From: a virus
Length of the DNA: 21,262 bases
Direction: 5' to 3' (one strand)
Virus record (IMG/VR): IMGVR_UViG_3300024344_001297
Location: 1-21,262 of that record
Each line of letters begins with the position of its first letter. Position 1 is the stretch's first letter. The notes under the pieces were generated by a model. It was not told the origin of the DNA. It saw only the letters and a list, made by a program, of their open reading frames with translations, and made no database searches. Made by a program: the position numbers and the translations under genes. Of the stretch, positions 1 through 18,853 are shown piece by piece.

Positions 1-707
1 ATGTATTAAGAAATAAGATTAAAAACTTTGCTTCAACTGTATCATTATCTGGTGGTAAAAAAGTTGTGATATTAGATGAGGCAGATTATCTTAATCCACA
101 ATCAACACAACCTGCATTAAGAGGATTTGTAGAGGAGTTTCATAAGAATTGTAGATTTATTCTTACTTGTAATTTTAAGAATAGAATTATAGAACCTTTA
201 CATAGTAGATTTTCAAATATAGAGTTCAAGGTAAATCCAAAAGATAAACCTAAACTTGCAACTAAATTATTTGAGAGAGCAGTTTATATTTTAAAAGAGC
301 AAAATATTAGTTATGAAGATAAGGTCCTTGCAGAATTAATTAAGAAGCATTTTCCTGATTTCAGAAAACTAATAAATGAATTACAAAGGTATTCAGTAAG
401 TGGTACCATAGACGCTGGTATTCTAGTAAATGTATCAGATGAAAATCTAAAATCATTGCTAACACATCTAAAGAATAAAGAGTTTAGCGACATGAGAAAG
501 TGGGTTGTCAATAACCTTGACAATGATCCTGTTAAGATTTTCAGAAAGATATATGATACACTATATCAAAGTCTAGAGCCATCTACCATACCTCATGCTG
601 TTTTAATTATTGCTGACTATCAATACAAGTCAGCGTTTGTTGCTGACCAGGAGATTAATCTAGTTGCTTGTTTAACTGAGTTAATGTCACAGGTTAAGTT
701 CAAATGA
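1..707 (+). CDS. 44: Sliding clamp loader large subunit, T4 gp44-like (5' partial)
   Basis: ATPase subunit of the phage clamp loader, which with gp62 opens and loads the gp45 sliding clamp at primer-template junctions. The reading frame is open from base 3 to the TGA at 705-707, so the start and the Walker A region lie upstream of the window. About 234 residues are visible against 319 in T4 gp44. The visible part begins just before an AAA+ Walker B strand (KKVVILDEAD, about 57-86), followed by a sensor-1-like FILTCN and an arginine-finger-like HSRF, then the helical C-terminal collar domain. A GTG at 66 falls inside Walker B and cannot be the start. The stop overlaps the gp62 start (ATGA), as expected for a translationally coupled 44-62 pair. 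Identity follows from the motifs plus the gp62-regA-gp43 order downstream. Confidence 0.93.
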   Translation, partial: VLRNKIKNFASTVSLSGGKKVVILDEADYLNPQSTQPALRGFVEEFHKNCRFILTCNFKNRIIEPLHSRFSNIEFKVNPKDKPKLATKLFERAVYILKEQNISYEDKVLAELIKKHFPDFRKLINELQRYSVSGTIDAGILVNVSDENLKSLLTHLKNKEFSDMRKWVVNNLDNDPVKIFRKIYDTLYQSLEPSTIPHAVLIIADYQYKSAFVADQEINLVACLTELMSQVKFK

Positions 708-1093
708 GTTATGAATTAAAAGACTATCTTAACGCCATAAACTTTAATAAAAAGAATCTGATGGATTCTGAAGATAAATTATGGCAAAAGAAATATCCCT
801 CTTTTATAGTAAACAAAATATTGTCTGGTTTTCAAGATTGTGTAATGCTCGTAAATGAAATGAATCGTAATCATTTTGTTGATAAGGATATGCAGTTTCA
901 GTTTCTACTAAATAGTATTAGATCAAAGAAAAGGTTTAGTCCTTTTTTGAGAGCGAATAAATTAAAAGATATTGAGTGTGTAAAAGAGTATTATGGATAT
1001 AGTAATGATAAGGCAAAGTCCGCTCTTGATATACTCACCAACGATCAGATAAAGCTGATTAAAGAAAAATTATATAAGGGTGGGACCAAATGA
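704..1093 (+). CDS. 62: Sliding clamp loader small subunit, T4 gp62-like
   Basis: Small subunit of the clamp loader, partner of gp44. The 129-residue product begins MSYELKDYLNAINFNKKNLM and is shorter than T4 gp62 (187 residues), as I recall for marine T4-like phages. It has no catalytic motif, which fits its structural role. The start overlaps the gp44 stop in an ATGA tetranucleotide and the gene ends in another ATGA shared with regA, so the three are almost certainly translated from one mRNA by coupling. The assignment rests on position between gp44 and RegA and on the N-terminal pattern (short helix, then aromatic-rich segment with KYPSFIVNK); the sequence alone would be a weaker match. 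Confidence 0.85.
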   Translation: MSYELKDYLNAINFNKKNLMDSEDKLWQKKYPSFIVNKILSGFQDCVMLVNEMNRNHFVDKDMQFQFLLNSIRSKKRFSPFLRANKLKDIECVKEYYGYSNDKAKSALDILTNDQIKLIKEKLYKGGTK

Positions 1094-1518
1094 ATGAATT
1101 AGATAATATCTGGCATCCAGAAAAGATGTTAGAGGTACAGTTGAAAGAACCTGATGACTTTCTCAAGGTCAGGGAAACACTTACACGAATAGGTGTGGCA
1201 TCCAGAAAAGATAAAAAATTATTTCAATCTTGTCACATATTACATAAACAAGGAAGATATTTCATAGTGCATTTTAAAGAGTTATTTGCTTTAGATGGTA
1301 AAGAAGCAAACTTTTCTGACAATGACGCTGAGAGAAGAAATACAATTGCTCAATTACTAAGTGATTGGGGATTAATCGCTATATTAAACAAAGAAGTTGC
1401 TGAGAAGAAAGCACCATTATCACAAATTAAAGTTTTAAGTTTCAAAGAAAAGAACGAGTGGGACCTTCAAGCAAAATATAATATAGGTAAAAAAATAGAT
1501 GAAGGCACCAAAGTTTAG
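1090..1518 (+). CDS. regA: RegA translational repressor
   Basis: RNA-binding protein that represses translation of early phage mRNAs by covering their initiation regions. The 142-residue product matches T4 RegA (122 residues) along its length from memory: the core DDFLKVRETLTRIG, FQSCHILHKQGRYFIVHFKE, a segment ending LLSDWGLIAI and the C-terminal SFKEKNEWDL all have direct counterparts. It carries about 12 extra residues at the N-terminus (MNELDNIWHPEK) before the residue equivalent to the T4 start. Met13 is a possible alternative start, but the ATGA overlap with gp62 and the purine-rich GGGTGGGA 5' of the first ATG favour the longer form. The gene's last 20 bases overlap the next gene. In T4 RegA represses its own and clamp-loader mRNAs; the same loop is likely here. 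Confidence 0.95.
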   Translation: MNELDNIWHPEKMLEVQLKEPDDFLKVRETLTRIGVASRKDKKLFQSCHILHKQGRYFIVHFKELFALDGKEANFSDNDAERRNTIAQLLSDWGLIAILNKEVAEKKAPLSQIKVLSFKEKNEWDLQAKYNIGKKIDEGTKV

Positions 1519-2875
1519 AGACTTTATAACAGAGCAGAAAAAAGAATCTTATAAACTGCTTGTTATAACAGACGAACCAGAAAAGGCTAAAACTTTTCAC
1601 ACAGCAGACAGACTAAGAGAAGAAGCTGAAAAGTTAGGTTGGGATTATTATCTCTACAAACTAACTGGTGGCTATACAACATACAACGATGGTATTCGTA
1701 GATTTCATAATAAAGAAGATAAAAAAGGTTTTGTCGTAGATAAAGATACCGTAGCAATTATCAGAGGTTCTATAACTAGAAAGGATAGTTGGATGGACCT
1801 TATATCTATGTTAGAAAAAGATGGTGTATGTGTTGTAAACAGCAGGCAATCTGTTAGTGTTTGTACAGATAAGTACAGAACCTTTTTAAGATTATCTGAT
1901 TATGGTGTGCCACAACCAAGAACAGTTTTAATAAATGATCCTGATAATTTACAAAAGTCAGTAGAAGAATTAGATACTAAATTTCCTATCATACTAAAAA
2001 CGCTAAGAGGGTCAAAAGGTGTTGGTGTATTATTTGTTGAGTCAGAAAAATCATTAGACAGTATTGTACAACTTATTCATAAACAGGATGATGACGCTGA
2101 CCTATTACTTCAGGAATATCATAAGATAGATTATGATGTTAGGGTTTTAGTTTTAGGTGGCAAAATATTATCTGTAATGAAACGACCTGTATTAGAGGGT
2201 GATTTTAGAAGTAATGTTTCCCAAGGATCAAAACCAGAGAAGTTAGATTTAACAGAGATAGAGGTAGAGACGAGTCTATTGGCTGCAAAAGCAGTTAATG
2301 GTCTATGGACTGCTGTTGACTTTTTACCTAGTAAGAATAGAACAAAAGACGCACCTCTGGTTATAGAAGTAAACTCATCACCTGGAACTGAAGGTATGGA
2401 AGAGGCGACAGGTAGAAATATTAGTAAAGAGATATTAGAATTTTTTAGTGATAAAAAGAATTGGCAAATAGTACCGAGTGAATGTGGATACAAAGAGATC
2501 GTATCTATAAAACCATTTGGCGATATTGTAGCAAAATTTGATACAGGTAATTCAGGTATGTCAGTTATACACGCTGATAAGATGGAAGTAAAAGGTAAAC
2601 AAGTCACCTGGTCATTATTAGGCAAAACAATAACTAGTAATATAATTAGGAAAGAAGAAATATCAGTGGGTGGTTTAAGAGACTATAAAGAAGACAGATT
2701 TGTAATTAAGTTAGATGTAGGTTTCTTAGGTGGTACTTATGAGACAGAATTTACTTTAGACGATAGAGAGGATAGAACACCGATTTTATTTGACAGAGGA
2801 TTTATGAATCGAATGAATGTAATGGTAAATCCAAATAGAAAATATGTAGTGACTACAAAATATAGTTTAGAATAG
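1499..2875 (+). CDS. RimK-like ATP-grasp ligase fused to RimB-like aspartic-protease domain
   Basis: A 458-residue two-domain protein. Residues about 15-320 are an ATP-grasp ligase of the RimK type, which joins amino acids (classically glutamates) to a protein or peptide carboxyl end: a glycine-rich KTLRGSKGVGV nucleotide loop, a LLLQEY hinge and the metal-binding EVNSSPG at 290-296. Residues about 335-458 look like the RimB/retropepsin-like family (COG4067), with the aspartic-protease-type D348-T349-G350 and a C-terminal segment of the type LF-RGFMNRMNVMVNPNRKY. RimK and RimB genes are often neighbours in bacteria, so a fusion is plausible. The ATG lies inside regA with a 20-base overlap and a weak AGGT upstream. 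The N-terminus MKAPKFRDFITE resembles a T4 capsid-targeting peptide. Substrate unknown. Confidence 0.82.
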   Translation: MKAPKFRDFITEQKKESYKLLVITDEPEKAKTFHTADRLREEAEKLGWDYYLYKLTGGYTTYNDGIRRFHNKEDKKGFVVDKDTVAIIRGSITRKDSWMDLISMLEKDGVCVVNSRQSVSVCTDKYRTFLRLSDYGVPQPRTVLINDPDNLQKSVEELDTKFPIILKTLRGSKGVGVLFVESEKSLDSIVQLIHKQDDDADLLLQEYHKIDYDVRVLVLGGKILSVMKRPVLEGDFRSNVSQGSKPEKLDLTEIEVETSLLAAKAVNGLWTAVDFLPSKNRTKDAPLVIEVNSSPGTEGMEEATGRNISKEILEFFSDKKNWQIVPSECGYKEIVSIKPFGDIVAKFDTGNSGMSVIHADKMEVKGKQVTWSLLGKTITSNIIRKEEISVGGLRDYKEDRFVIKLDVGFLGGTYETEFTLDDREDRTPILFDRGFMNRMNVMVNPNRKYVVTTKYSLE

Positions 2876-3165: not shown

Positions 3166-5661
3166 ATGAAGTTCTATACATCGGTATTGCCATATCGTGG
3201 CAGGCTATTGGTCCGTGGTGTAAACCATGATGGTAGTCATAAAAAATATCGAGTTAATTATAGACCGTCTCTATTTGTGCCTGCAAACAAAGAATCAAAA
3301 TATAAAACATTAGATGGTCGTAATGCAGGCAAGATAGATTTTGATAGTATACCTGACGCCAAGAAATGGATTGATGAGTATGAAGATGTTAGTGGATTTG
3401 AATACTTTGGTAATACTAGATATCAATATCCTTTTATTGCAGATCAGTTCCCTGATAAGATAGATTGGGATATAAAACAGATAAGGCTAATCACAATCGA
3501 TATAGAATGTGAAAGTGAGAATGGTTTTCCTGACGCTGACGAAGCGATTGAACCTATCATATCAATCACAGCAAAAGAACACACTACAAAAAAGATTGTT
3601 GTCTTTGGCATGAATAATTTTGTCAATGATAGGCCAGATGTAAATTTTGTTAAGTGTGCTACTGAAAGAGATTTGATTGAGAAGTTTAAAGAGTTCTGGT
3701 TAGAATATAATCCTGATATCGTCACAGGTTGGAATGTTAAGTTCTTTGACATGCCTTATTTGATGAATAGATTTAGAAGGCTGATGGGCGATGAATATCT
3801 TTTACAGTTTAGTCCTTGGGGTGTGGTGACACAACAAAGTGCTAGGGTTACTGCTAAAGGTTTTAATAAAGAACAAAAGTATTGGGATATCATGGGTGTT
3901 GCTACTTTAGATTATCTTGACCTGTATCGTAAACATACTTTCGTTAGACGTGAAAGTTATAAATTAGATTACATAGGTGAGGTAGAATTAGGCGAGAACA
4001 AACATGAAAATCCTTATGATACGTTTAAAGAATTTTATACGAAAGATTATCAACAGTTTATTGAATATAATATCCAAGATGTTGAATTAGTTGATAAGTT
4101 AGAGGACAAGATGAAATTAATTGAATTACATTTGACTATGGCCTATGAGGCAAAGGTAAACTATCAAGATGTATTTGGTCAAGTTCGTATGTGGGATACT
4201 ATAATATTCAATCATCTAAAATCTAAAAATATTGTAGTGCCTGCTAATAAAGAATTAGAGAAGTCAAGAGCGTATGAAGGCGCTTATGTAAAAGATCCTA
4301 TCGTAGGATTTCACAACTGGATTGTAAGTTTTGATTTGAACAGTTTGTATCCACATTTAATTATGCAATACAATATCTCTCCTGAGACGATGGTCGGTTA
4401 TGAACCAAATCGTGTGAATGTAGAAAACATGTTGAATCAAAAATCTGATTTGTCTGACCTAGATATGAGGACTATCACTCCCAATGGTGCTCAATTTAGG
4501 ACAGACAAACAAGGCTTTCTTCCTGAGTTAATGGATAAATTATACAAAGAGAGAGTTATCTATAAAGACAAGATGGCAAAAGCAAAAGCATTGTATCAAG
4601 AGACAGGCGATAAGAGACTACAAAACGATATATCAAAAAATTATAATATTCAACTTGCAAGAAAGATTGCTTTGAATAGTGCTTATGGTGCTATCGGTAA
4701 TCAATACTTTAAATATTTTGATGTAAGACACGCTGAAGGTATCACTATGGCAGGTCAACTTACTATCAGATGGATTGAAAGAGACGTAAATATATATCTA
4801 AATAAATTATTAAAAACTAGTAATGATGTATATGTTGTTGCCTCTGATACAGATTCTATCTATATCAAATTAGATTCTATTGTCAATAAAATATTTGAAG
4901 ATAAATCAGATAGTAAAAAGATTGTAAAAGTATTAGATAAATTTTGTGAAGAAAAACTACAACCATATATTGACAAAAGTTTTTCTAGACTGGCAGAATA
5001 TGTGAAAGCATATGACCAGAAAATGTTTATGAAACGAGAAGTGATTGCCAACAAAGGTATATGGACTGCTAAGAAAAGATATATCTTAAACGTATTTAAC
5101 GAAGAAGGCCTTGATCTGAAAGAACCTAAACTAAAGATCATGGGTATCGAGGCTGTTAAGTCATCAACTCCTGCACCTTGTCGTGTTAAGATTAAAGAAG
5201 CATTAAAAGTTATTATGAACAAAGATGAGGCCTCACTAATAGATTTCATAGAAAACTTTAGAACACATTTTAAAAAATTATCACCTGAAGATATTGCATA
5301 TCCTAGAAGTTGCAATAATCTCAAAAAATATAGTTCATCAAAAGACATATATCAAAAGTCAACACCTATTCATGTGAAAGGCGCCTTGATCTATAATAAT
5401 ATGTTAAAGAAAAAACAATTAAGAAAGTATGAGATAATACAAGATGGTGATAAGATAAAATTTATAACATTAAAAGAACCAAATCCTATAAGAGAGCATG
5501 TAATATCTTTCACAAGTAAGTTGCCAAAAGAGTTCAACTTACATCAATATATTGATTATGATGAGATGTTTACAAAATCTTTTTTAGAACCACTAAGATT
5601 TATTGTTAATGCAATCGGTTGGAATTTTGAGAAGAAGGCAACTTTAGATGAATTTTTTTAG
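3166..5661 (+). CDS. 43: Family B DNA polymerase, T4 gp43-like
   Basis: Replicative DNA polymerase with 3'-5' proofreading exonuclease. The 831-residue product (T4 gp43 has 898) carries every family B landmark: Exo I with D112 and E114 in TIDIECE, Exo II GWNVKFFDMPYLMNR, Exo III YNIQDVELVDKL, polymerase motif A with D390 in SFDLNSLYP, motif B KIALNSAYG (500-508), motif C with D561/D563 in ASDTDS, and KKRY downstream. No catalytic residue is missing. The extreme C-terminus KKATLDEFF (823-831) matches the position and style of the RB69/T4 gp43 tail that binds the gp45 clamp. The ATG has no clear ribosome-binding site (AT-only upstream), so translation may depend on coupling to the 76-residue ORF ending 3 bases before. 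Confidence 0.97.
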   Translation: MKFYTSVLPYRGRLLVRGVNHDGSHKKYRVNYRPSLFVPANKESKYKTLDGRNAGKIDFDSIPDAKKWIDEYEDVSGFEYFGNTRYQYPFIADQFPDKIDWDIKQIRLITIDIECESENGFPDADEAIEPIISITAKEHTTKKIVVFGMNNFVNDRPDVNFVKCATERDLIEKFKEFWLEYNPDIVTGWNVKFFDMPYLMNRFRRLMGDEYLLQFSPWGVVTQQSARVTAKGFNKEQKYWDIMGVATLDYLDLYRKHTFVRRESYKLDYIGEVELGENKHENPYDTFKEFYTKDYQQFIEYNIQDVELVDKLEDKMKLIELHLTMAYEAKVNYQDVFGQVRMWDTIIFNHLKSKNIVVPANKELEKSRAYEGAYVKDPIVGFHNWIVSFDLNSLYPHLIMQYNISPETMVGYEPNRVNVENMLNQKSDLSDLDMRTITPNGAQFRTDKQGFLPELMDKLYKERVIYKDKMAKAKALYQETGDKRLQNDISKNYNIQLARKIALNSAYGAIGNQYFKYFDVRHAEGITMAGQLTIRWIERDVNIYLNKLLKTSNDVYVVASDTDSIYIKLDSIVNKIFEDKSDSKKIVKVLDKFCEEKLQPYIDKSFSRLAEYVKAYDQKMFMKREVIANKGIWTAKKRYILNVFNEEGLDLKEPKLKIMGIEAVKSSTPAPCRVKIKEALKVIMNKDEASLIDFIENFRTHFKKLSPEDIAYPRSCNNLKKYSSSKDIYQKSTPIHVKGALIYNNMLKKKQLRKYEIIQDGDKIKFITLKEPNPIREHVISFTSKLPKEFNLHQYIDYDEMFTKSFLEPLRFIVNAIGWNFEKKATLDEFF

Positions 5662-5715: not shown

Positions 5716-7614
5716 ATGAGTAAAATAATTGGAATAGATTTAGGAACAACAAACTCTTGTGTCGCTGTAATGGAAGGCACACAAGGAAAGGTAATAGAAA
5801 ATACTGAGGGTCAGAGAACGACACCATCAGTAGTATCTTTTGGTGATGAGACGCTGATTGGTATGCCAGCAAAAAGAGTTGCTGTAACCAATCCAGAGAA
5901 TACTATCTATGCAGTTAAAAGATTAATTGGTAGAAAGTTTGATGGTGGCTCTGTACAGAAAGATATCAAAACAACACCTTATAAAATTATCAAAGCAGAT
6001 AACGGAGACGCATGGATAGAATCAAAAGATAAAAAGTATTCACCATCACAAATCTCTGCTTTCACTTTACAGAAAATGAAAGAGACTGCTGAGAAATATT
6101 TAGGATCAGAGGTCAAAGAGGCAGTCATAACTGTACCTGCTTACTTTAATGATTCACAAAGACAGGCAACAAAAGACGCTGGTAAGATAGCAGGTCTTGA
6201 TGTAAAAAGAATTGTAAACGAACCAACAGCAGCTGCACTTGCATATGGTCTAGATAAAAAGAAATCAGGCACAGTTGCAGTATATGATTTGGGTGGTGGT
6301 ACTTTTGATGTATCTATACTTGAATTAGGTGATGGTGTGTTTGAGGTTAAATCTACGAATGGTGATACATCACTAGGTGGTGAAGACTTTGATAATGCAA
6401 TCGTAGATCATTTATTATCTACATTTAAAAATGATACAGGCATGGACCTGAGATCAGACAATCTAGCATTGCAGAGAGTTAGAGAAGCAGCCGAGAAAGC
6501 AAAATGTGAATTATCATCTGTTGTTGAAACAGAGATCAATATACCTTTCATAACTGCTGATCAAGCAGGACCTAAACATTTAAATGTAAAACTAAACAGA
6601 GCAACATTTGAAAGTTTAGTAGATAGCCTTATTAAGAGATCACTTGCACCTTGCGAGACAGCATTGAAAGACGCTAATATAAAATCAACAGACATAAGTG
6701 AGGTTATATTAGTTGGTGGTATGACTAGAATGCCTAAGGTAAAAGAAGAGGTAGAAAAATTCTTTGGTAAGAAACCACATGAGGGTGTTAATCCAGATGA
6801 GGTAGTTGCCATTGGTGCTGCTATTCAAGGTGGTGTATTACAAGGTGATGTCAAAGATGTATTACTATTAGACGTGACACCACTATCACTAGGTATTGAA
6901 ACACTTGGTGGTGTGACTACAAAACTTATAGAAAAAAACACAACGATACCTACAAAGAAAAGTCAGGTATTTTCTACTGCTGAAAACAATCAATCAGCAG
7001 TTAATATTAATGTGACACAAGGTGAAAGACAACTTGCAAAAGATAATAAGATGTTAGGTAACTTTATGTTAGATGGTATACCACCTGCACCAAGAGGCAT
7101 GCCACAGATCGAGGTTACATTTGATATAGACGCAAATGGTATTGTAAGTGTGTCTGCTAAAGATAAGGGTACAGGTAAAGAACAAAAGATTACCATACAA
7201 GCGTCTGGCGGATTATCAGAAGCAGAGATAGATCAAATGGTCAAAGACGCAGAAGCAAATAAAGAAGCAGACGAGAAGATCAAAGAGAAGATAGAGGCAA
7301 GAAATCATGCTGATGGTCTAGTTGCTTCTACTGAGAAAGCATTAAAAGAACATGGTGACAAGGTATCTGCTGAAGAAAAAACTAAGGTAGAGACATCTAT
7401 CAATGATCTAAAAGAAGCATTGAAAGGTGATGATACCGAAGATATCAAAAAGAAGACAGGTGAATTGACCGAAGCGTCAATGAAACTTGGTGAAGCAATT
7501 TATAAAGATATGCAAGAACAAGCAAAAGAAACGGCACAAGATGGGCCTAAAAACGAAGAAAAAAAGAAAGATGATAATATCGTTGACGCAGATTATGAAG
7601 AAGTAAAAGACTAA
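5716..7614 (+). CDS. dnaK: Molecular chaperone DnaK (Hsp70), full length
   Basis: ATP-dependent Hsp70 chaperone of 632 residues, near the usual bacterial length of about 640 and apparently intact. It shows the N-terminal phosphate loop [15 protein letters not shown], phosphate-2 motif [12 protein letters not shown] (189-200), adenosine motif [11 protein letters not shown] (330-340), interdomain linker VLLLDVTP (382-389), substrate domain, helical lid, and an acidic tail ending DADYEEVKD like cellular DnaK. Features such as ADNGDAW and [11 protein letters not shown] recall alphaproteobacterial DnaK from memory, suggesting acquisition from such a host. AAGGAG at 5701-5706 precedes the ATG by 9 bases. 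No dnaJ or grpE is seen, so it probably uses host cochaperones. Codon use looks like its AT-rich phage neighbours, so the transfer is probably old. Possible roles are capsid folding or replication complex remodelling. Confidence 0.97.
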
Positions 7615-13096: not shown

Positions 13097-13173
13097 GGGG
13101 GCGTAGTTCAGTTGGTTAGAACGCCTGCCTGTCACGCAGGAGGTCGAGGGTTCGAGTCCCTTCGCTCCCGCCA
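13097..13173 (+). tRNA. tRNA-Asp (anticodon GTC), CCA encoded
   Basis: A 77-base cloverleaf. The acceptor stem pairs GGGGGCG (13097-13103) with CGCTCCC (13163-13169), with one G-T pair; discriminator G at 13170 and encoded CCA at 13171-13173. The anticodon stem-loop CCTGCCTGTCACGCAGG carries GTC at 13131-13133. The T-arm GAGGGTTCGAGTCCCTT is canonical. It starts two bases after the last base of the oxygenase stop codon with no promoter of its own, so it is presumably cut from the long transcript by host RNases. It reads GAC and, by wobble, GAT. Confidence 0.97.
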
Positions 13174-14448: not shown

Positions 14449-14456
14449 TATAAATA
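14449..14456 (+). promoter_or_regulatory. T4-type late promoter, TATAAATA
   Basis: An exact match to the T4 late octamer TATAAATA in the 37-base gap between two genes. Transcription by the late sigma (gp55-like) holoenzyme would start near 14462, leaving a ~24-base leader with GGAAAGAG (14472-14479) before the ATG at 14486. No -35 element is present, as expected for this class. It marks the downstream genes as late. Confidence 0.7.
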
Positions 14457-14485: not shown

Positions 14486-15700
14486 ATGCAAGGGTTTCAA
14501 AAGTATCTTATAGAAGATAAAAATACACACCTTGAACATTTAGAAGACGAAATTATAAACAATGGGACACAAGGGGCAAGAACCTCGATTGAATTTTTAA
14601 AGTCTATCAAAAAAATGCTTCAAGGCGGCAAAGGCGGGTCGAATGTTTCCGTTAAATGGGACGGTGCACCTGCTGTATTTGCAGGTACGAATCCAGAGAA
14701 CGGTAGGTTCTTTGTGGGTACCAAGTCTATATTTAACGCAACACCTAAAATAAATTACACCGTGTCAGATATTTCTAGAAATCACGGCGGCGCACTGGCG
14801 GATAAACTGGCTGTTGCGTTAAAGTATTTGCCCTCTCTAGGGATCAAAGGTGTTCTACAAGGCGACTTGTTATTTACAGATGATAAAAAGAACGCTGTAG
14901 TAAATGGCGAGAAGTCAATAGTATTCACACCCAATACCATAACATATGCTATACCAGCAACTAGTGTTGATATGTACAACAGAATTAGAGCAGCAAAAAT
15001 TGGTATAATATTTCACACTTCATATTCAGGAAAGACAATGAGAGGACTAAAAGCTAGTTTTGGTGCAAGTGTAGGTGGTCTTAAATCAAACAAAAATATA
15101 TTCTTTGATGACGCAAGATACAAACAAGCACAAGATCCTGGTTTTACCAAGGGTGAGGAAAAACAGTTTGACGCTATTCTAAGAATGGCAGAGGGCTCTG
15201 CTTACAAGGCAGGTGCTTTCATAGATAAGATTAAAAAAGATAAAGGTCCTTTGTCTCTAGGTGTTCAACTAAAAACATTTTTCAATACATATATTAGAGC
15301 AGGCACAAAGATAGGTAATGCTAAAGCACTAACAAATAATTTTGAGGTGTTCTTTAGAAGCAGAATACAAAAAGAAATTAAAGATAAAAAGACAGATAAA
15401 GCAAAACAAAAGTATACCGAGATATTAGAAGCAGGTATGAAAATACTAAGACCTAATAGACAAGGTCTTTATTTTGCTATCGCAACTTACATAACTTTAC
15501 AAAGAGCAAAAAGTTTATTGTTAAGTAAATTAAATCAAATACAAAGTATTGGTTCTTTTATGAGAACATCTACTGGATACAAAGCAACAAATCCAGAAGG
15601 TTATGTTGCCATCAATAAGGGCAGTGCTGTAAAACTAGTTGATAGATTAGTTTTTAGTAGAGCAAACTTTACAATGGCAAAAGATTGGGTAAGAGGATAA
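14486..15700 (+). CDS. KxDG nucleotidyltransferase/ligase-like protein, DUF6267-type
   Basis: A 404-residue protein with the outline of a covalent nucleotidyltransferase (DNA/RNA ligase-like). Motif I is VKWDGAPAVF with K57-W58-D59-G60, where the lysine would form the lysyl-AMP; GVLQGDLLF (~120-130) could be motif III, EGYV (371-374) motif IV and VKLV (382-385) motif V. The family is, as I recall, DUF6267 in T4-like marine phages. A helical insert (about 215-350) separates motifs III and IV. The N-terminus MQGFQKYLIED resembles the T4 capsid-targeting peptide with an LIE cleavage site. It is the first gene behind an exact late promoter. Activity and substrate are unproven; a degenerate ligase fold is an alternative. 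Confidence 0.75.
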   Translation: MQGFQKYLIEDKNTHLEHLEDEIINNGTQGARTSIEFLKSIKKMLQGGKGGSNVSVKWDGAPAVFAGTNPENGRFFVGTKSIFNATPKINYTVSDISRNHGGALADKLAVALKYLPSLGIKGVLQGDLLFTDDKKNAVVNGEKSIVFTPNTITYAIPATSVDMYNRIRAAKIGIIFHTSYSGKTMRGLKASFGASVGGLKSNKNIFFDDARYKQAQDPGFTKGEEKQFDAILRMAEGSAYKAGAFIDKIKKDKGPLSLGVQLKTFFNTYIRAGTKIGNAKALTNNFEVFFRSRIQKEIKDKKTDKAKQKYTEILEAGMKILRPNRQGLYFAIATYITLQRAKSLLLSKLNQIQSIGSFMRTSTGYKATNPEGYVAINKGSAVKLVDRLVFSRANFTMAKDWVRG

Positions 15701-15701
15701 A

Positions 15702-15959
15702 ATGTATAAATTTAAACAGTTTATGTTGCAGGCACAGAAACAAAAGAAGTGCCCGCCAGGATATAGATTTGATAAGAAATTACAGGTCTGTGTGCCTACT
15801 GGTGTGAGTAGATATTATCCTTATCTAGGTGGTGTCAGAAATAATACTGATACATCTAATGGCAACAATAACAACAACGGCAACGGTAATGGTAACGGCA
15901 ACGGAAATGGTAATGGAAATAGTGGCAACGGCAACAATAGTGGTGGTAACGGATCGTGA
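15702..15959 (+). CDS. Small Cys-motif protein with Asn/Gly-repeat tail
   Basis: An 85-residue protein in two parts. Residues 1-40 are MYKFKQFMLQAQKQKK followed by CPPGYRFDKKLQVCVP, a two-cysteine loop (C17, C32) seen in small phage virion proteins by my recollection. Residues about 50-85 are an Asn/Gly low-complexity tail (GNGNGN with N4 runs). AAGAGG lies 5 bases before the ATG, 1 base after the preceding stop. The N-terminus shares the MxxFxxF pattern of its neighbours, but ends LQAQ rather than (I/L)xE. The gene ends in a GTGA overlap with the next. A virion decoration or flexible-linker role is possible; no function is claimed. Confidence 0.72.
   Translation: MYKFKQFMLQAQKQKKCPPGYRFDKKLQVCVPTGVSRYYPYLGGVRNNTDTSNGNNNNNGNGNGNGNGNGNGNSGNGNNSGGNGS
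15861..15956 (+). repeat. Degenerate GGNAAY hexamer repeat (Gly-Asn codons)
   Basis: About 96 bases of GGC/GGT/GGA alternating with AAC/AAT plus a few AGT codons, coding the Asn/Gly tail. Third positions vary, so selection appears to act on the protein rather than by recent exact duplication. Such a tract is prone to length change. Confidence 0.85.
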
Positions 15960-18853
15960 AAACATTTAATCAACTAAGAAAAACAATCTCAGAAAAATTC
16001 ATGGACATAGATAGCCTTCGTCACGCAAAGGTTGAGGAGAAACCTGTTGAGAATTACAAAGGTGATTACAAAGAATTAAGAATAGAAGAACCTACTGAGA
16101 ATACAAGTAGCAAGACTAGAGAAGAATTAAAATCCATGCAAGGCTTGATGAAAGGTAGAACACCTGAGATTGAGCAAAGTGTTAAAAACCATGATGATAA
16201 AGTTGCATATGCAGTAGAACAAGTTTTAAAAAAGAACAATCTAGAATACAAAGAGTCAACAGTTAAAAAACTTGCGACTATTGGATCAGGCATAGTAAGA
16301 TACTATAAAAATAAATTTCAAAGAGTTAGACCATACAATCTTGCAGAGGCATTAGGCATGAAAGATTTTGACCATATGCCACTAGATAGTGATACAATGA
16401 AAACACCAGCATATCCATCTGGTCATACTTTACAATCAAGACTGGTTGCTATGTATTATGCAGAGAAATATCCTGAACATAAACAAACATTAATGATGGC
16501 TGCTGATGAATGTGGTGAGGGTAGAGTATATGCAGGTTGGCACTATCCATCTGACCACTATGCATCTGTAAAATTAGCAAAACAGATTTATCCTAATATA
16601 ACAATATCAATGAACGAAAGTGTTATTGATATACCAAGAAGAACATATGCACCTAACGTATTTGATGATGAAGAAACAAATGATCCTAAAATTAAAGCAA
16701 GTGTTAAGGCACAGATAGACAAACAGATTAAAGAATTTGAAAAAGAATATCCTGTAATCAAAACAACATTGATAGGTTCTATTCTTACAAAGAGATATAG
16801 AGATGACGCTGATCTAGACATCAATGTTCTATTTGATGTGCCACAAGAAAAACAGGAAGAAGAAAGATTAAGATTATCCAAGAAGTTTTTATCTGCTAAC
16901 AATCCTGATAACATACAAGGCATGTTGATACCAGGTTCAAGACATCCTATAAACTATTACATACTTACAGATAGAGAAACGTATGATGAACAAAATGAAA
17001 AAGCAGATGCTGTTTTTGATATTGAGAGTGATAGATTTATAAAAAGACCAGAAGACTTTACGTTTGATATAAACTTGTATCTAAAAGATTTTGAAAAAAA
17101 GGTACAAGAGATAGATGTAATTAAGGGCGAACTAAAAAGAGATGTAATTGATTATGATGATCTAACAGAATTAGAGCCAAGAGATGTTAGAGACATAAAA
17201 GATAGAATAGAAAGTAAAGTACAAGAAATTAAAAAAGATTTACAAGACATCATAGACATTGGTGATAAAGTTGACGCTGAAAGAAGAGCAGCGTTTGATA
17301 GAGACATGACACCAGATGAGATAAGAGCATATGGTATTAAGAATAGATTACCTAAAGCAGTTATCTATAAGATGTTAGAGAAGTACCACTATATAACTTT
17401 TTTCAAAAGATGTAAAAAGATATTAGATGATGATGAAGTTTCACCAGATGAAATAGATTCATTGAAAGGTGGTTATGTAGAATCTGCCCAAAGTGAAACG
17501 AGGGCAGTCCATGAGGCGTTAAGTAGTAGCAAAAAACTGACATTTGCTTTTGGTAGGTTCAACCCTCCTACCACTGGGCACGCTAAACTTATGAGAGAAG
17601 TGATTACACAAGCTAGAAAGAACAACGCAAACCATGTTGTTTACGCTAGCGCCTCACAGGACAGTAGAAAGAATCCATTAGATGTAAAAACTAAAGTACA
17701 GTTTATGAAAAAAATGTTTCCACAAAACAAGATATTAGCAGCAGGTGGAACACAAAGAACATTTATGGAGATATTAAAATTTTACAATAGAATGTATGGT
17801 GAAATTATTATGGTTGCAGGTAGTGATAGAATAAGAGAATTTCAAACACTTGCAGACAAATATAATGGTAAAGAATATAATTACAAATCAATCAAAGTAG
17901 TTTCATCTGGTGAAAGAGATCCTGATGCTGAAGGTGTTACAGGTATGTCAGCTTCTAAAATGAGAGAGATGGCAAAAAATGGTGATTATAGAAACTTTGC
18001 AAGAGGTGTTGTAGGATTATCATCTTCAGATACTAAAAAATTATATGACGCTGTAAGAAAAGGCATGGACATTAGAGAAAGTTATGTAGATAAATTTACT
18101 GATTTTATAAACAATGATTTAAGAGAAGAATATCACCAAGAAAAAATATTTAATGTAGGTGATATGGTAGAACATATGGATGGCTCACAAGGTATGGTAG
18201 TTAGACGAGGTTCTAATTATGTTTCATATGAATCAGATGGTCTTATAAAAAAGGCATGGTTGTATGATCTACAACCTTTAGATGAGGCACCAAGAATACC
18301 TAGAAAAAAAGGTCAACCTGCAGGCTCAGATAAACATAGTGACTTATATACAGACGAAAATCCAAAAGGAACTATTCATGGTCTTGGTTTTAAAGATGTA
18401 GCAAAGGCAAGAGCTAGTGTAGCAAAAATTAAAGCGTCTGGTAAGAAACACGCTCATAAAATACAGGCTGCGATTGCAATGGAACAAAGAGCAAAAGAAA
18501 TGGGTAAGACAGCAGAAGCGGCAGTCTTTAGAAGATATATCGAACAGATGAAAAAGAAGACTAAAGAAATGCAAAAATCTAAGAAAGAAAGTTTTTTAGA
18601 TAGTTTAGAAAAGGCATTTCCTATTGACGAATATAACGAAATAGGCACAGATGAGTATGCTCAGCACACTATGAAAATGACGCCAGGTCAACCTATTCAA
18701 AACTTTAGAAAATATACAGAAATTATTAAGTCCGAAGACATAGAAAAATTTGCAATTGAAGCTGAAACTATTGATAAATATAAGAAAAGATTTAAAGAGC
18801 GTTGGAAAGAAGAATTAGATAAGGCTGTTCAACGAATGAAAAAGGAACTATAA
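15956..18853 (+). CDS. 965-residue multidomain enzyme: PAP2 phosphatase + polymerase-beta NTase + NMNAT-like + SH3/KOW-like
   Basis: Starts at GTG 15956 in a GTGA overlap; this gives MKTFNQLRKTISE, close to the T4 capsid-targeting peptide. Domain 1 (~80-215) is a PAP2/vanadium-haloperoxidase phosphatase with all three signatures: K118-x6-R125-P126, P154-S155-G156-H157, and G189-R190-x5-H196-x3-D200. Domain 2 (~240-480) is a polymerase-beta-type nucleotidyltransferase with G274-S275 and D286-x-D288, then a long charged helix. Domain 3 (~525-700) is an NMNAT/cytidylyltransferase fold with GRFNPPTTGH (533-542), GSDR and SASKMR (665-670). Residues ~732-775 (FNVGDMVEHMDGSQGMVV...) look SH3/KOW-like, and ~785-880 form a basic helical DUF5872-like segment. 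No frameshift is visible. Likely late and virion-linked; substrates unknown. Confidence 0.85.
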   Translation: MKTFNQLRKTISEKFMDIDSLRHAKVEEKPVENYKGDYKELRIEEPTENTSSKTREELKSMQGLMKGRTPEIEQSVKNHDDKVAYAVEQVLKKNNLEYKESTVKKLATIGSGIVRYYKNKFQRVRPYNLAEALGMKDFDHMPLDSDTMKTPAYPSGHTLQSRLVAMYYAEKYPEHKQTLMMAADECGEGRVYAGWHYPSDHYASVKLAKQIYPNITISMNESVIDIPRRTYAPNVFDDEETNDPKIKASVKAQIDKQIKEFEKEYPVIKTTLIGSILTKRYRDDADLDINVLFDVPQEKQEEERLRLSKKFLSANNPDNIQGMLIPGSRHPINYYILTDRETYDEQNEKADAVFDIESDRFIKRPEDFTFDINLYLKDFEKKVQEIDVIKGELKRDVIDYDDLTELEPRDVRDIKDRIESKVQEIKKDLQDIIDIGDKVDAERRAAFDRDMTPDEIRAYGIKNRLPKAVIYKMLEKYHYITFFKRCKKILDDDEVSPDEIDSLKGGYVESAQSETRAVHEALSSSKKLTFAFGRFNPPTTGHAKLMREVITQARKNNANHVVYASASQDSRKNPLDVKTKVQFMKKMFPQNKILAAGGTQRTFMEILKFYNRMYGEIIMVAGSDRIREFQTLADKYNGKEYNYKSIKVVSSGERDPDAEGVTGMSASKMREMAKNGDYRNFARGVVGLSSSDTKKLYDAVRKGMDIRESYVDKFTDFINNDLREEYHQEKIFNVGDMVEHMDGSQGMVVRRGSNYVSYESDGLIKKAWLYDLQPLDEAPRIPRKKGQPAGSDKHSDLYTDENPKGTIHGLGFKDVAKARASVAKIKASGKKHAHKIQAAIAMEQRAKEMGKTAEAAVFRRYIEQMKKKTKEMQKSKKESFLDSLEKAFPIDEYNEIGTDEYAQHTMKMTPGQPIQNFRKYTEIIKSEDIEKFAIEAETIDKYKKRFKERWKEELDKAVQRMKKEL

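What the first reader, a model, noticed from the sequence alone, without database searches (positions are those of the whole stretch)
1499..2875. RimK ATP-grasp fused to a RimB-like aspartic-protease domain in a replication operon
The ATP-grasp part (EVNSSPG at 290-296) could add amino acids to a protein end, and the DTG-containing domain (348-350) resembles RimB, which regulates or removes RimK-type tails. A fused writer and eraser would be self-contained. Its place between regA and gp43, plus a FITE N-terminal signal, raises the idea that it changes host ribosomes (RpsF) or a phage protein early in infection.
Basis: partly seen in the sequence, partly recalled or inferred. Interest (0 to 1): 0.58.

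Follow-up and report, generated by a model that had tools for sequence, protein, structure and literature searches.

The report
Injected protein-glutamylation writer-eraser in marine phages
A marine T4-like phage carries one enzyme predicted both to add short glutamate tails to proteins and to clip them off, and its first dozen residues look like the tag such phages use to load enzymes into the capsid for injection, so it may rewrite proteins in the host from the first moment of infection.

Summary
ORF 1499-2875 (458 aa) is a RimK-type ATP-grasp ligase (residues 19-318) fused to a RimB/DUF785 retropepsin (330-452), between regA and DNA polymerase gp43. The retropepsin is supported by Pfam (just over cut-off), by fold match to RloA/DUF785 crystal structures (Z 12-14), by DTG in all 94 rows that have the domain, and by conservation of the basic residues that bind poly-glutamate in RloA. 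The fusion is not new: Monier et al. (2008) reported RimK-DUF785 next to regA in ocean phage contigs, and bacterial RimBK (opposite order) is proteolytically active. New here: the "FITE" N-terminus matches the T4 capsid-targeting sequence (T4 IPII/IPIII MKTYQEFIAEA; here PKFRDFITE), present in 91 of 94 unique homologues; it sits on at least five unrelated protein families of marine T4-like phages; and in cyanophage S-CREM2 all three genes that carry it encode proteins found in virions by mass spectrometry. A distant Yersinia-phage homologue is also virion-associated. Best reading: a packaged, injected glutamylation writer/eraser. Host S6 as target is not supported: SAR11 S6 tails are not acid-ended, and SAR11 genomes lack RimB and nearly all lack RimK. 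The target is unknown.

The parts
1499..2875 (+). RimK-RimB fusion gene, 458 aa
1499..1534 (+). N-terminal tag, residues 1-12 (MKAPKFRDFITE): proposed T4-type capsid-targeting sequence with predicted prohead-protease cut after Glu12
   Evidence: conserved in 91 of 94 unique homologues; T4 ipII/ipIII N-termini read from NC_000866; tag/virion link in S-CREM2
1553..2452 (+). RimK ATP-grasp ligase part, residues 19-318
   Evidence: PF08443, TIGR00768; model aligned to RimK 7qys Z 29.4, 285 residues, rmsd 2.9
2486..2854 (+). RimB/DUF785 retropepsin domain, residues 330-452
   Evidence: PF05618; domain model aligned to 2pma Z 13.7, 9g58 Z 12.8, 9g59 Z 12.3; profile hits to the same entries
2540..2548 (+). 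DTG catalytic motif, residues 348-350
   Evidence: 94 of 94 rows that have the domain
1090..1518 (+). regA translational repressor (upstream neighbour, overlaps the start by 20 bases)
   Evidence: PF01818, phrog_242
704..1093 (+). clamp-loader small subunit (gp62-like)
   Evidence: PF16790
3..707 (+). clamp-loader large subunit gp44 (start cut by the window)
   Evidence: PF21328
2926..3162 (+). small ORF, phrog_1811, between the fusion gene and gp43
3166..5661 (+). DNA polymerase gp43
   Evidence: PF00136/PF03104
14486..15700 (+). second gene with the same kind of tag (MQGFQKYLIE), phrog_455
14449..14456 (+). TATAAATA, T4-type late-promoter-like site 30 bases upstream of the second tagged gene; the only exact copy in the window
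   Evidence: 3.87 expected by chance, so the single copy is not evidence by number

Best explanation
The gene makes a phage virion cargo enzyme. Its first ~12 residues act as a T4-type capsid-targeting sequence: they take the protein into the prohead core and are cut off after Glu12 by the prohead protease; the protein is then injected with the DNA. In the host the RimK part uses ATP to add alpha-linked glutamates to the C-terminus of some protein (or makes free poly-glutamate), and the RimB part, a dimeric retropepsin with Asp348, trims these tails and may stimulate the ligase as RimB does in Pseudomonas. The net effect would be a self-limiting polyglutamate mark placed at the start of infection, in a host that has neither enzyme. 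Shown by computation: both domains, their conserved active-site and substrate residues, the conserved tag, and the association of that tag with virion proteins in related cyanophages. Inferred: packaging and injection of this protein, and its two activities. Unknown: the target.
For: Domains. Catalytic and substrate residues: RimK positions K125, K167, D213, R215, R229, R237, N239, D274, E290, N292 identical in 95 of 95 rows; D348-T349-G350 in 94 of 94 with the domain (that these positions are the RimK active site is recalled). RloA's poly-Glu-binding K46, R114, R137 (catalytic D48; R114A and R137A lower activity most, PMC12239564 passages) correspond by profile alignment and spacing to K346 (93 of 94), R400 and R423 (94 of 94); the step from P. 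aeruginosa RloA numbering to the aligned PDB sequences is my inference from spacing. Tag: 91 of 94 unique proteins (second aromatic position also allowed to be Leu, as in L171); the 3 misses are two contig-edge truncations and Yersinia phage GN1. T4 ipII and ipIII start MKTYQEFIAEA; T4 review: residues 4 and 7 target, 8 and 10 process, protease site L/I-X-E (PMC9026906 passages). The tag lies before residue 18, where the alignment to cellular RimK begins. At least five unrelated protein families share it. S-CREM2: the three annotated genes with the strict tag (SAM hydrolase, APH-like kinase, cytidylyltransferase) are all among the 52 proteins found in virions (PMC10665884 section 18); S-SCSM1: 1 of 2 tagged annotated genes (NMNAT gp281) is a virion protein; pooled 4 of 5, Fisher p about 0.006. 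YerA41 g112 'Ribosomal protein modification protein' is marked as found in particles (PMC7354516 passages), matched to our hit by gene order. Host: PF05618 in 0 of 41 and TIGR00768 over cut-off in 1 of 41 SAR11-family genomes, that one looking like a phage contig.
Against: No proteomics seen for this phage or for Mosig. In Mosig the fusion is the only one of 200 CDS with the strict tag (0.24 expected), so within one genome the tag is not statistically striking. The Yersinia phages lack the tag though their homologue is called structural, and YerA41's particle list also holds many replication enzymes that could be carry-over. Virion lists of cyanophages may hold contaminants too, as PMC10665884 itself says. 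No late-promoter-like TATAAATA near 1499. Melnitz phages keep tag and ligase but lack the RimB domain. Bacterial RimBK did not glutamylate SBW25 RpsF (PMC11957791 section 14), so ligase activity of fused forms is unproven. The Fisher test uses an approximate CDS total (219) for S-CREM2, a tag rule that also allowed Met at the Ile/Leu position, and was designed after I had seen gp281 and gp154 named as virion enzymes; it rests on few genes.
Confidence: 0.68

Rival explanations
1. A glutamylation writer/eraser made inside the cell from the early replication operon and acting there, not packaged; the N-terminus is only a start peptide.
For: Gene sits in the gp44-gp62-regA-gp43 block and has no TATAAATA upstream. 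The one cyanophage stand-alone RimK read here has no such tag (S-RIM32).
Against: Tag conserved in 91 of 94 unique homologues while the next residues vary, shared with unrelated families, and tied to virion presence in two relatives. T4 internal proteins are, as I recall, also made early.
Confidence: 0.2
2. It modifies host ribosomal protein S6 (RpsF) as RimK does in E. coli and Pseudomonas, to shift translation to phage messages (proposed for phage RimK in PMC2530865).
For: Closest solved homologues are S6 ligases, including a RimK-RpsF complex 5zk6 (Z 28.7); RimK plus RimB matches the Rim system.
Against: S6-ligase model NF007764 not reached (99.5 against 331 bits). SAR11 S6 tails: 4 of 29 end in Glu, none in two acidic residues. 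SAR11 lacks a resident Rim system. Host identity is inferred.
Confidence: 0.15
3. The ligase works on an amino-acid carrier protein (LysW/ArgW-like) or a small molecule, or makes free poly-glutamate, rather than tagging a host protein.
For: LysX and ArgX tie with RimK in fold (3vpd, 3vpb Z 29.4); LysX and MptN models also score; RimB stimulates free poly-Glu synthesis by RimK (PMC11957791).
Against: No LysW-like C-terminus among 200 Mosig proteins or small window ORFs; the YerA41 gene noted as LysW-like has no such tail. A poly-Glu protease fits poly-Glu tails better than carrier chemistry.
Confidence: 0.15
4. The RimB domain is a catalytically dead leftover that only binds or activates the ligase.
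For: Low Pfam score (27.2 against 27); one phage lineage (Melnitz) has no such domain.
Against: DTG and the three basic substrate-contact positions are conserved in 93-94 of 94 rows; purifying selection.
Confidence: 0.08

Closest known systems
Phage RimK-DUF785 on GOS contigs next to regA (Monier et al. 2008, PMC2530865)
   Same: Almost certainly the same gene family: same domain order, same neighbour
   Different: DUF785 was then of unknown function; no protease, packaging or tag was proposed in the section read; function suggested by analogy to the T7 kinase acting on S6
RimBK of Desulfotalea psychrophila and Flavobacteriales/Rhodobacterales (Little et al. 2025, PMC11957791)
   Same: RimB and RimK domains in one chain; protease active on polyglutamylated RpsF
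   Different: RimB is N-terminal there, C-terminal here; cellular; no capsid tag described; glutamylation of SBW25 RpsF not seen
Pseudomonas RimA-RimB-RimK
   Same: Writer plus eraser of poly-alpha-L-glutamate tails
   Different: Separate genes, cyclic-di-GMP/RimA control, RpsF as target; none of that control is seen here
T4 internal proteins IPI-III and Alt
   Same: N-terminal propeptide of the same spacing (IPII, IPIII); Alt is an injected enzyme that modifies a host protein
   Different: Chemistry: Alt is an ADP-ribosyltransferase; here glutamate ligation and trimming
RloA retropepsins of Pseudomonas (PMC12239564)
   Same: Fold, DTG, poly-Glu-contact residues
   Different: RloA is secreted to the periplasm, not fused to a ligase

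Membership tests
RimK family alpha-L-glutamate ligase (TIGR00768) | curated score cut-off | tested here: met
   177.9 against 143.4 bits
RimK family alpha-L-glutamate ligase (TIGR00768) | ATP-grasp fold and active-site residues | tested here: met
   Z 29.4 to RimK 7qys; invariant residues in 95 of 95 rows (active-site roles recalled)
30S ribosomal protein S6--L-glutamate ligase (NF007764) | curated score cut-off of the equivalog | tested here: not met
   99.5 against 331 bits
30S ribosomal protein S6--L-glutamate ligase (NF007764) | adds Glu to RpsF | not testable with these tools
   needs an assay
RimB / PF05618 retropepsin | Pfam gathering score | tested here: met
   27.2 against 27, marginal; 20 of 22 A2 members match at E 0.01
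RimB / PF05618 retropepsin | DTG catalytic motif | tested here: met
   94 of 94 rows with the domain
RimB / PF05618 retropepsin | retropepsin fold | tested here: met
   2pma Z 13.7 (113 aligned, rmsd 2.5), 9g58 12.8, 9g59 12.3; retroviral and Ddi1 proteases at 8.6-10.4
RimB / PF05618 retropepsin | basic residues that hold poly-Glu | tested here: met
   K346, R400, R423, by alignment and spacing
RimB / PF05618 retropepsin | cleaves poly-Glu; acts as a dimer | not testable with these tools
   needs an assay
RimBK hybrid | RimB N-terminal, RimK C-terminal | tested here: not met
   order reversed; reversed order also in bacterial MAG locus L172
T4-type capsid-targeting sequence | aromatic-x-x-aromatic-(I/L)-x-E within the first ~20 residues | tested here: met
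   window and 91 of 94 homologues; T4 reference
T4-type capsid-targeting sequence | prohead protease gene in the genome | tested here: met
   annotated in the relative Mosig; the window is a fragment and was not shown to hold one
T4-type capsid-targeting sequence | proteins that carry it are in virions | tested here: inconclusive
   3 of 3 tagged genes in S-CREM2 and 1 of 2 in S-SCSM1; not measured for this protein
T4-type capsid-targeting sequence | cleavage after the Glu | not testable with these tools
   needs N-terminal peptide mass spectrometry

The most novel reading that the evidence does not exclude
Marine T4-like phages share a portable T4-type capsid-targeting tag that marks a class of injected enzymes (RimK-RimB, nucleotidyltransferases, P-loop kinases, SAM hydrolase, APH-like kinase, phrog_455), and RimK-RimB is one of them: an injected writer and eraser of protein polyglutamate tails, bringing to SAR11 cells a protein-modification chemistry they do not own.
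Probability: 0.55. Interest if true: 0.8.

Novelty: new variant of a known kind. Interest (0 to 1): 0.58.

Why it matters
If true, phages of the most abundant ocean bacteria inject a reversible protein-tailing enzyme at the first moment of infection, a counterpart of T4 Alt with different chemistry. More useful still, the short N-terminal tag would let anyone read from sequence which enzymes these phages pack into the capsid, a question that so far needed virion proteomics, and it can be tested directly with existing isolates (Mosig, S-CREM2, S-SCSM1).

Tried and rejected
S6 as target: SAR11 S6 tails do not look like RimK substrates (a first parse read only part of the loci and is superseded). 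LysW-type carrier protein: none found in Mosig or the window. Poly-Glu or doubly acidic tails as self-targets in Mosig: no protein of 200 has five Glu or eight acidic residues in a row; three end in two acidic residues. Defence-related family: no PADLOC match. DNA hypermodification (YerA41 has modified DNA; ATP-grasp ligases occur in such pathways, recalled): considered, not pursued, as it leaves the retropepsin and the tag unexplained. Late promoter at the gene: none. The count of 71 tagged ORFs against 0.31 expected in 644 is inflated, because the loci were fetched with tagged queries; I rely on the five unrelated families and the virion proteomes instead. Locus L170 (MAG TMED93, masked letters) was left out of all alignments; L173-L177 are ordinary RimK/ATP-grasp relatives and were not used. 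The PDB search with the full model showed only ATP-grasp folds, which says nothing about the C-terminal domain; the domain was modelled alone for that.

Full report
WHAT IS THERE. The frame 1499-2875 is a real gene of 458 codons. Residues 19-318 are a RimK-family ligase: PF08443 at E 3.9e-37 and TIGR00768 above its cut-off, but not the S6-specific equivalog NF007764 (99.5 against 331 bits). Residues 330-452 match PF05618 by a hair (27.2 against 27 bits). The gene overlaps the end of regA and is followed by a small phrog_1811 ORF and the gp43 polymerase. The window is a 21262-base virus record; the nearest isolate is Pelagibacter phage Mosig EXVC030M, whose homologue is 66.6% identical over the full length, sits in the same place and is annotated 'putative glutathione synthetase'. 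HTVC008M, another Pelagibacter phage, has no match and only a small gene at that place.

IS THE C-TERMINAL DOMAIN REALLY RimB-LIKE. An AlphaFold2 model of the whole protein (mean pLDDT 80.5) aligns to RimK structures only over its first part (7qys Z 29.4, rmsd 2.9, 285 residues; 5zk6, RimK with RpsF, Z 28.7). The domain modelled alone (137 residues, pLDDT 83.0) has as its four best Foldseek matches 9g58 RloA, two chains of 2pma DUF785 and 9g59 RloA2 (E 2.1e-5 to 3.6e-4), with VIA-align Z 13.7 for 2pma, 12.8 for 9g58 and 12.3 for 9g59, then retroviral and Ddi1 proteases at about 9-10. A sequence profile of the domain finds the same three entries (9g59 1.8e-8, 2pma 1.9e-6, 9g58 5e-6); a fourth, ribosomal protein eL27 at 0.0047, is taken as chance. 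Among 94 unique homologues plus the window, DTG is present in all 94 rows that have the domain; the one row without it is Melnitz, which lacks the domain. In RloA, K46, R114 and R137 hold a poly-Glu peptide around catalytic D48, and R114A and R137A reduce activity most (PMC12239564, passages). By profile alignment and spacing these are K346, R400 and R423 here (Lys two before the Asp; 23 residues between the two Arg in both), kept in 93-94 of 94 rows. So the domain keeps not only the catalytic motif but the substrate-holding residues.

PRIOR KNOWLEDGE. Monier et al. 2008 (PMC2530865, section 11 read; passages) found more than a hundred ocean metagenome contigs with phage RimK, one flanked by regA, 'several' with DUF785 at the C-terminal side, and suggested S6 modification by analogy with T7. 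Little et al. 2025 (PMC11957791, sections 5 and 14 and passages) showed that RimB is a retropepsin that removes glutamates from RpsF and stimulates RimK, and that RimBK hybrids (RimB first) exist in bacteria and cleave, though no glutamylation of SBW25 RpsF was seen. I saw no mention of a phage form in the passages read. A search for 'RimK' with 'DUF785' returned only Monier. The reversed order is also in a bacterial MAG (L172) and, per Monier, in Halobacteria.

THE N-TERMINAL TAG. The 17 residues before the ligase fold have no counterpart in the aligned cellular RimKs, whose first residue pairs with residue 18 here (7qys, 3vpb). They hold F-x-x-F/Y-I/L-x-E in 91 of 94 unique homologues (Leu allowed at the second aromatic, as in L171); two misses are cut by contig ends, the third is Yersinia phage GN1. 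T4's packaged internal proteins IPII and IPIII start MKTYQEFIAEA, the same spacing. In T4 the aromatic positions 4 and 7 target the protein to the prohead core, positions 8 and 10 govern cutting, and the protease site is L/I-X-E (PMC9026906, passages). A remote homologue (43%) on a phage-like contig in a Sphingobacteriales MAG keeps it as MLSFNELISE. In these phages the tag is not tied to one family: 96 non-redundant tagged ORFs in the fetched IMG/VR loci, L171 and the window fall into five unrelated groups of 52, 17, 16, 9 and 2 members: RimK-RimB, phrog_455, an adenylate-kinase-like P-loop protein, a nucleotidyltransferase and another P-loop protein (the names of the last three are by sight and). 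The window holds one more, 14486-15700 (MQGFQKYLIE), with the window's only TATAAATA 30 bases upstream. In Mosig alone only the fusion has the strict tag, 1 of 200 CDS.

DOES THE TAG MEAN 'IN THE VIRION'. Two cyanophages of the same family (Kyanoviridae) have published virion proteomes. I scanned both whole genomes for the strict tag. In S-CREM2 the annotated genes with it are gp6 (SAM hydrolase), gp14 (APH-like kinase, GTG start) and gp154 (cytidylyltransferase); one further mechanical hit is an antisense frame inside gp6. All three are in the table of 52 virion proteins (PMC10665884, section 18). The authors thought such enzymes may be carried in virions but also named contamination as possible. 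In S-SCSM1 the annotated tagged genes are gp281 (NMNAT, a virion protein; PMC9602691 passages) and the 106-residue gp030 (not so labelled); a third mechanical hit is a 62-residue minus-strand frame. Together 4 of 5; Fisher p about 0.006 with an approximate gene total for S-CREM2. Independently, the Yersinia phage homologue (36% over residues 82-447), without this tag, is called 'structural protein', and YerA41 g112 'Ribosomal protein modification protein' carries the asterisk for LC-MS/MS detection (PMC7354516 passages and section 18); that g112 is this gene is my inference from its place two after the reductase alpha subunit. I saw no paper that links a capsid targeting sequence with marine phages: searches 'capsid targeting' + 'cyanophage' and 'capsid targeting sequence' + 'marine' gave only T4 and SPN3US papers.

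THE HOST. SAR11 genomes were found among 385 alphaproteobacterial genomes by a 16S probe (2 hits). In that family PF05618 is in 0 of 41 genomes and TIGR00768 over its cut-off in 1 of 41; the latter lies among phage-like genes (by sight). S6 was found in 35 of 41; of 30 loci returned, 29 tails could be read: 13 end in Lys, 4 in Glu, none in two acidic residues. So the phage would import the chemistry, and S6 is not an obvious substrate. That SAR11 is the host rests on Mosig.

VERDICT. A real, conserved, very probably active two-domain enzyme of a family already noted in 2008, now readable as a glutamylation writer plus poly-Glu retropepsin, with good evidence that its N-terminus is a packaging tag. 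My estimates: packaging 0.8; ligase plus protease activity 0.75; protein polyglutamylation rather than another RimK-type reaction 0.65; S6 as the target 0.15.

Noticed in passing
14486-15700, 14449-14456: phrog_455 protein with the same N-terminal tag; strict tag in 48 of 80 IMG/VR homologues. Very widespread in cyanophages (470 records). TATAAATA sits 30 bases upstream.
   Followed up: partly
15956-18853: 965-residue protein with a nucleotidyltransferase domain (phrog_3041/395), the family that carries the tag elsewhere and is found in cyanophage virions.
   Followed up: partly
L332 (OR473000) gp12, gp13: S-CREM2 Cas9-like nuclease, a virion protein, has a tag-like string RFASFMAEA at residues 18-26, and gp13, also a virion protein, starts MKDLHSFLTEQ.
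   Followed up: no
L003 5586-5990 and 5992-7041: Melnitz-1: the record's label 'RimK-like ATP-grasp' sits on the RegA gene; the real tagged RimK (no RimB domain) is labelled hypothetical and starts at TTG as annotated.
   Followed up: partly
L171 3992-5404: Phage-like contig in a Sphingobacteriales MAG with a tagged RimK-RimB gene, 43% identical.
   Followed up: partly
L172 2713-5929: Bacterial MAG with a RimK-RimB fusion between two further RimK-type genes.
   Followed up: no
L302: The only RimK over cut-off in 41 SAR11-family genomes lies among phage-like genes and resembles cyanophage RimK.
   Followed up: no
5716-7614: Full-length DnaK-like protein (632 aa) in the phage, directly after the polymerase gene (named by sight, not searched).
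   Followed up: no
13097-13173: tRNA-Asp(gtc) between the oxygenase-like gene and the phrog_1462 gene.
   Followed up: no
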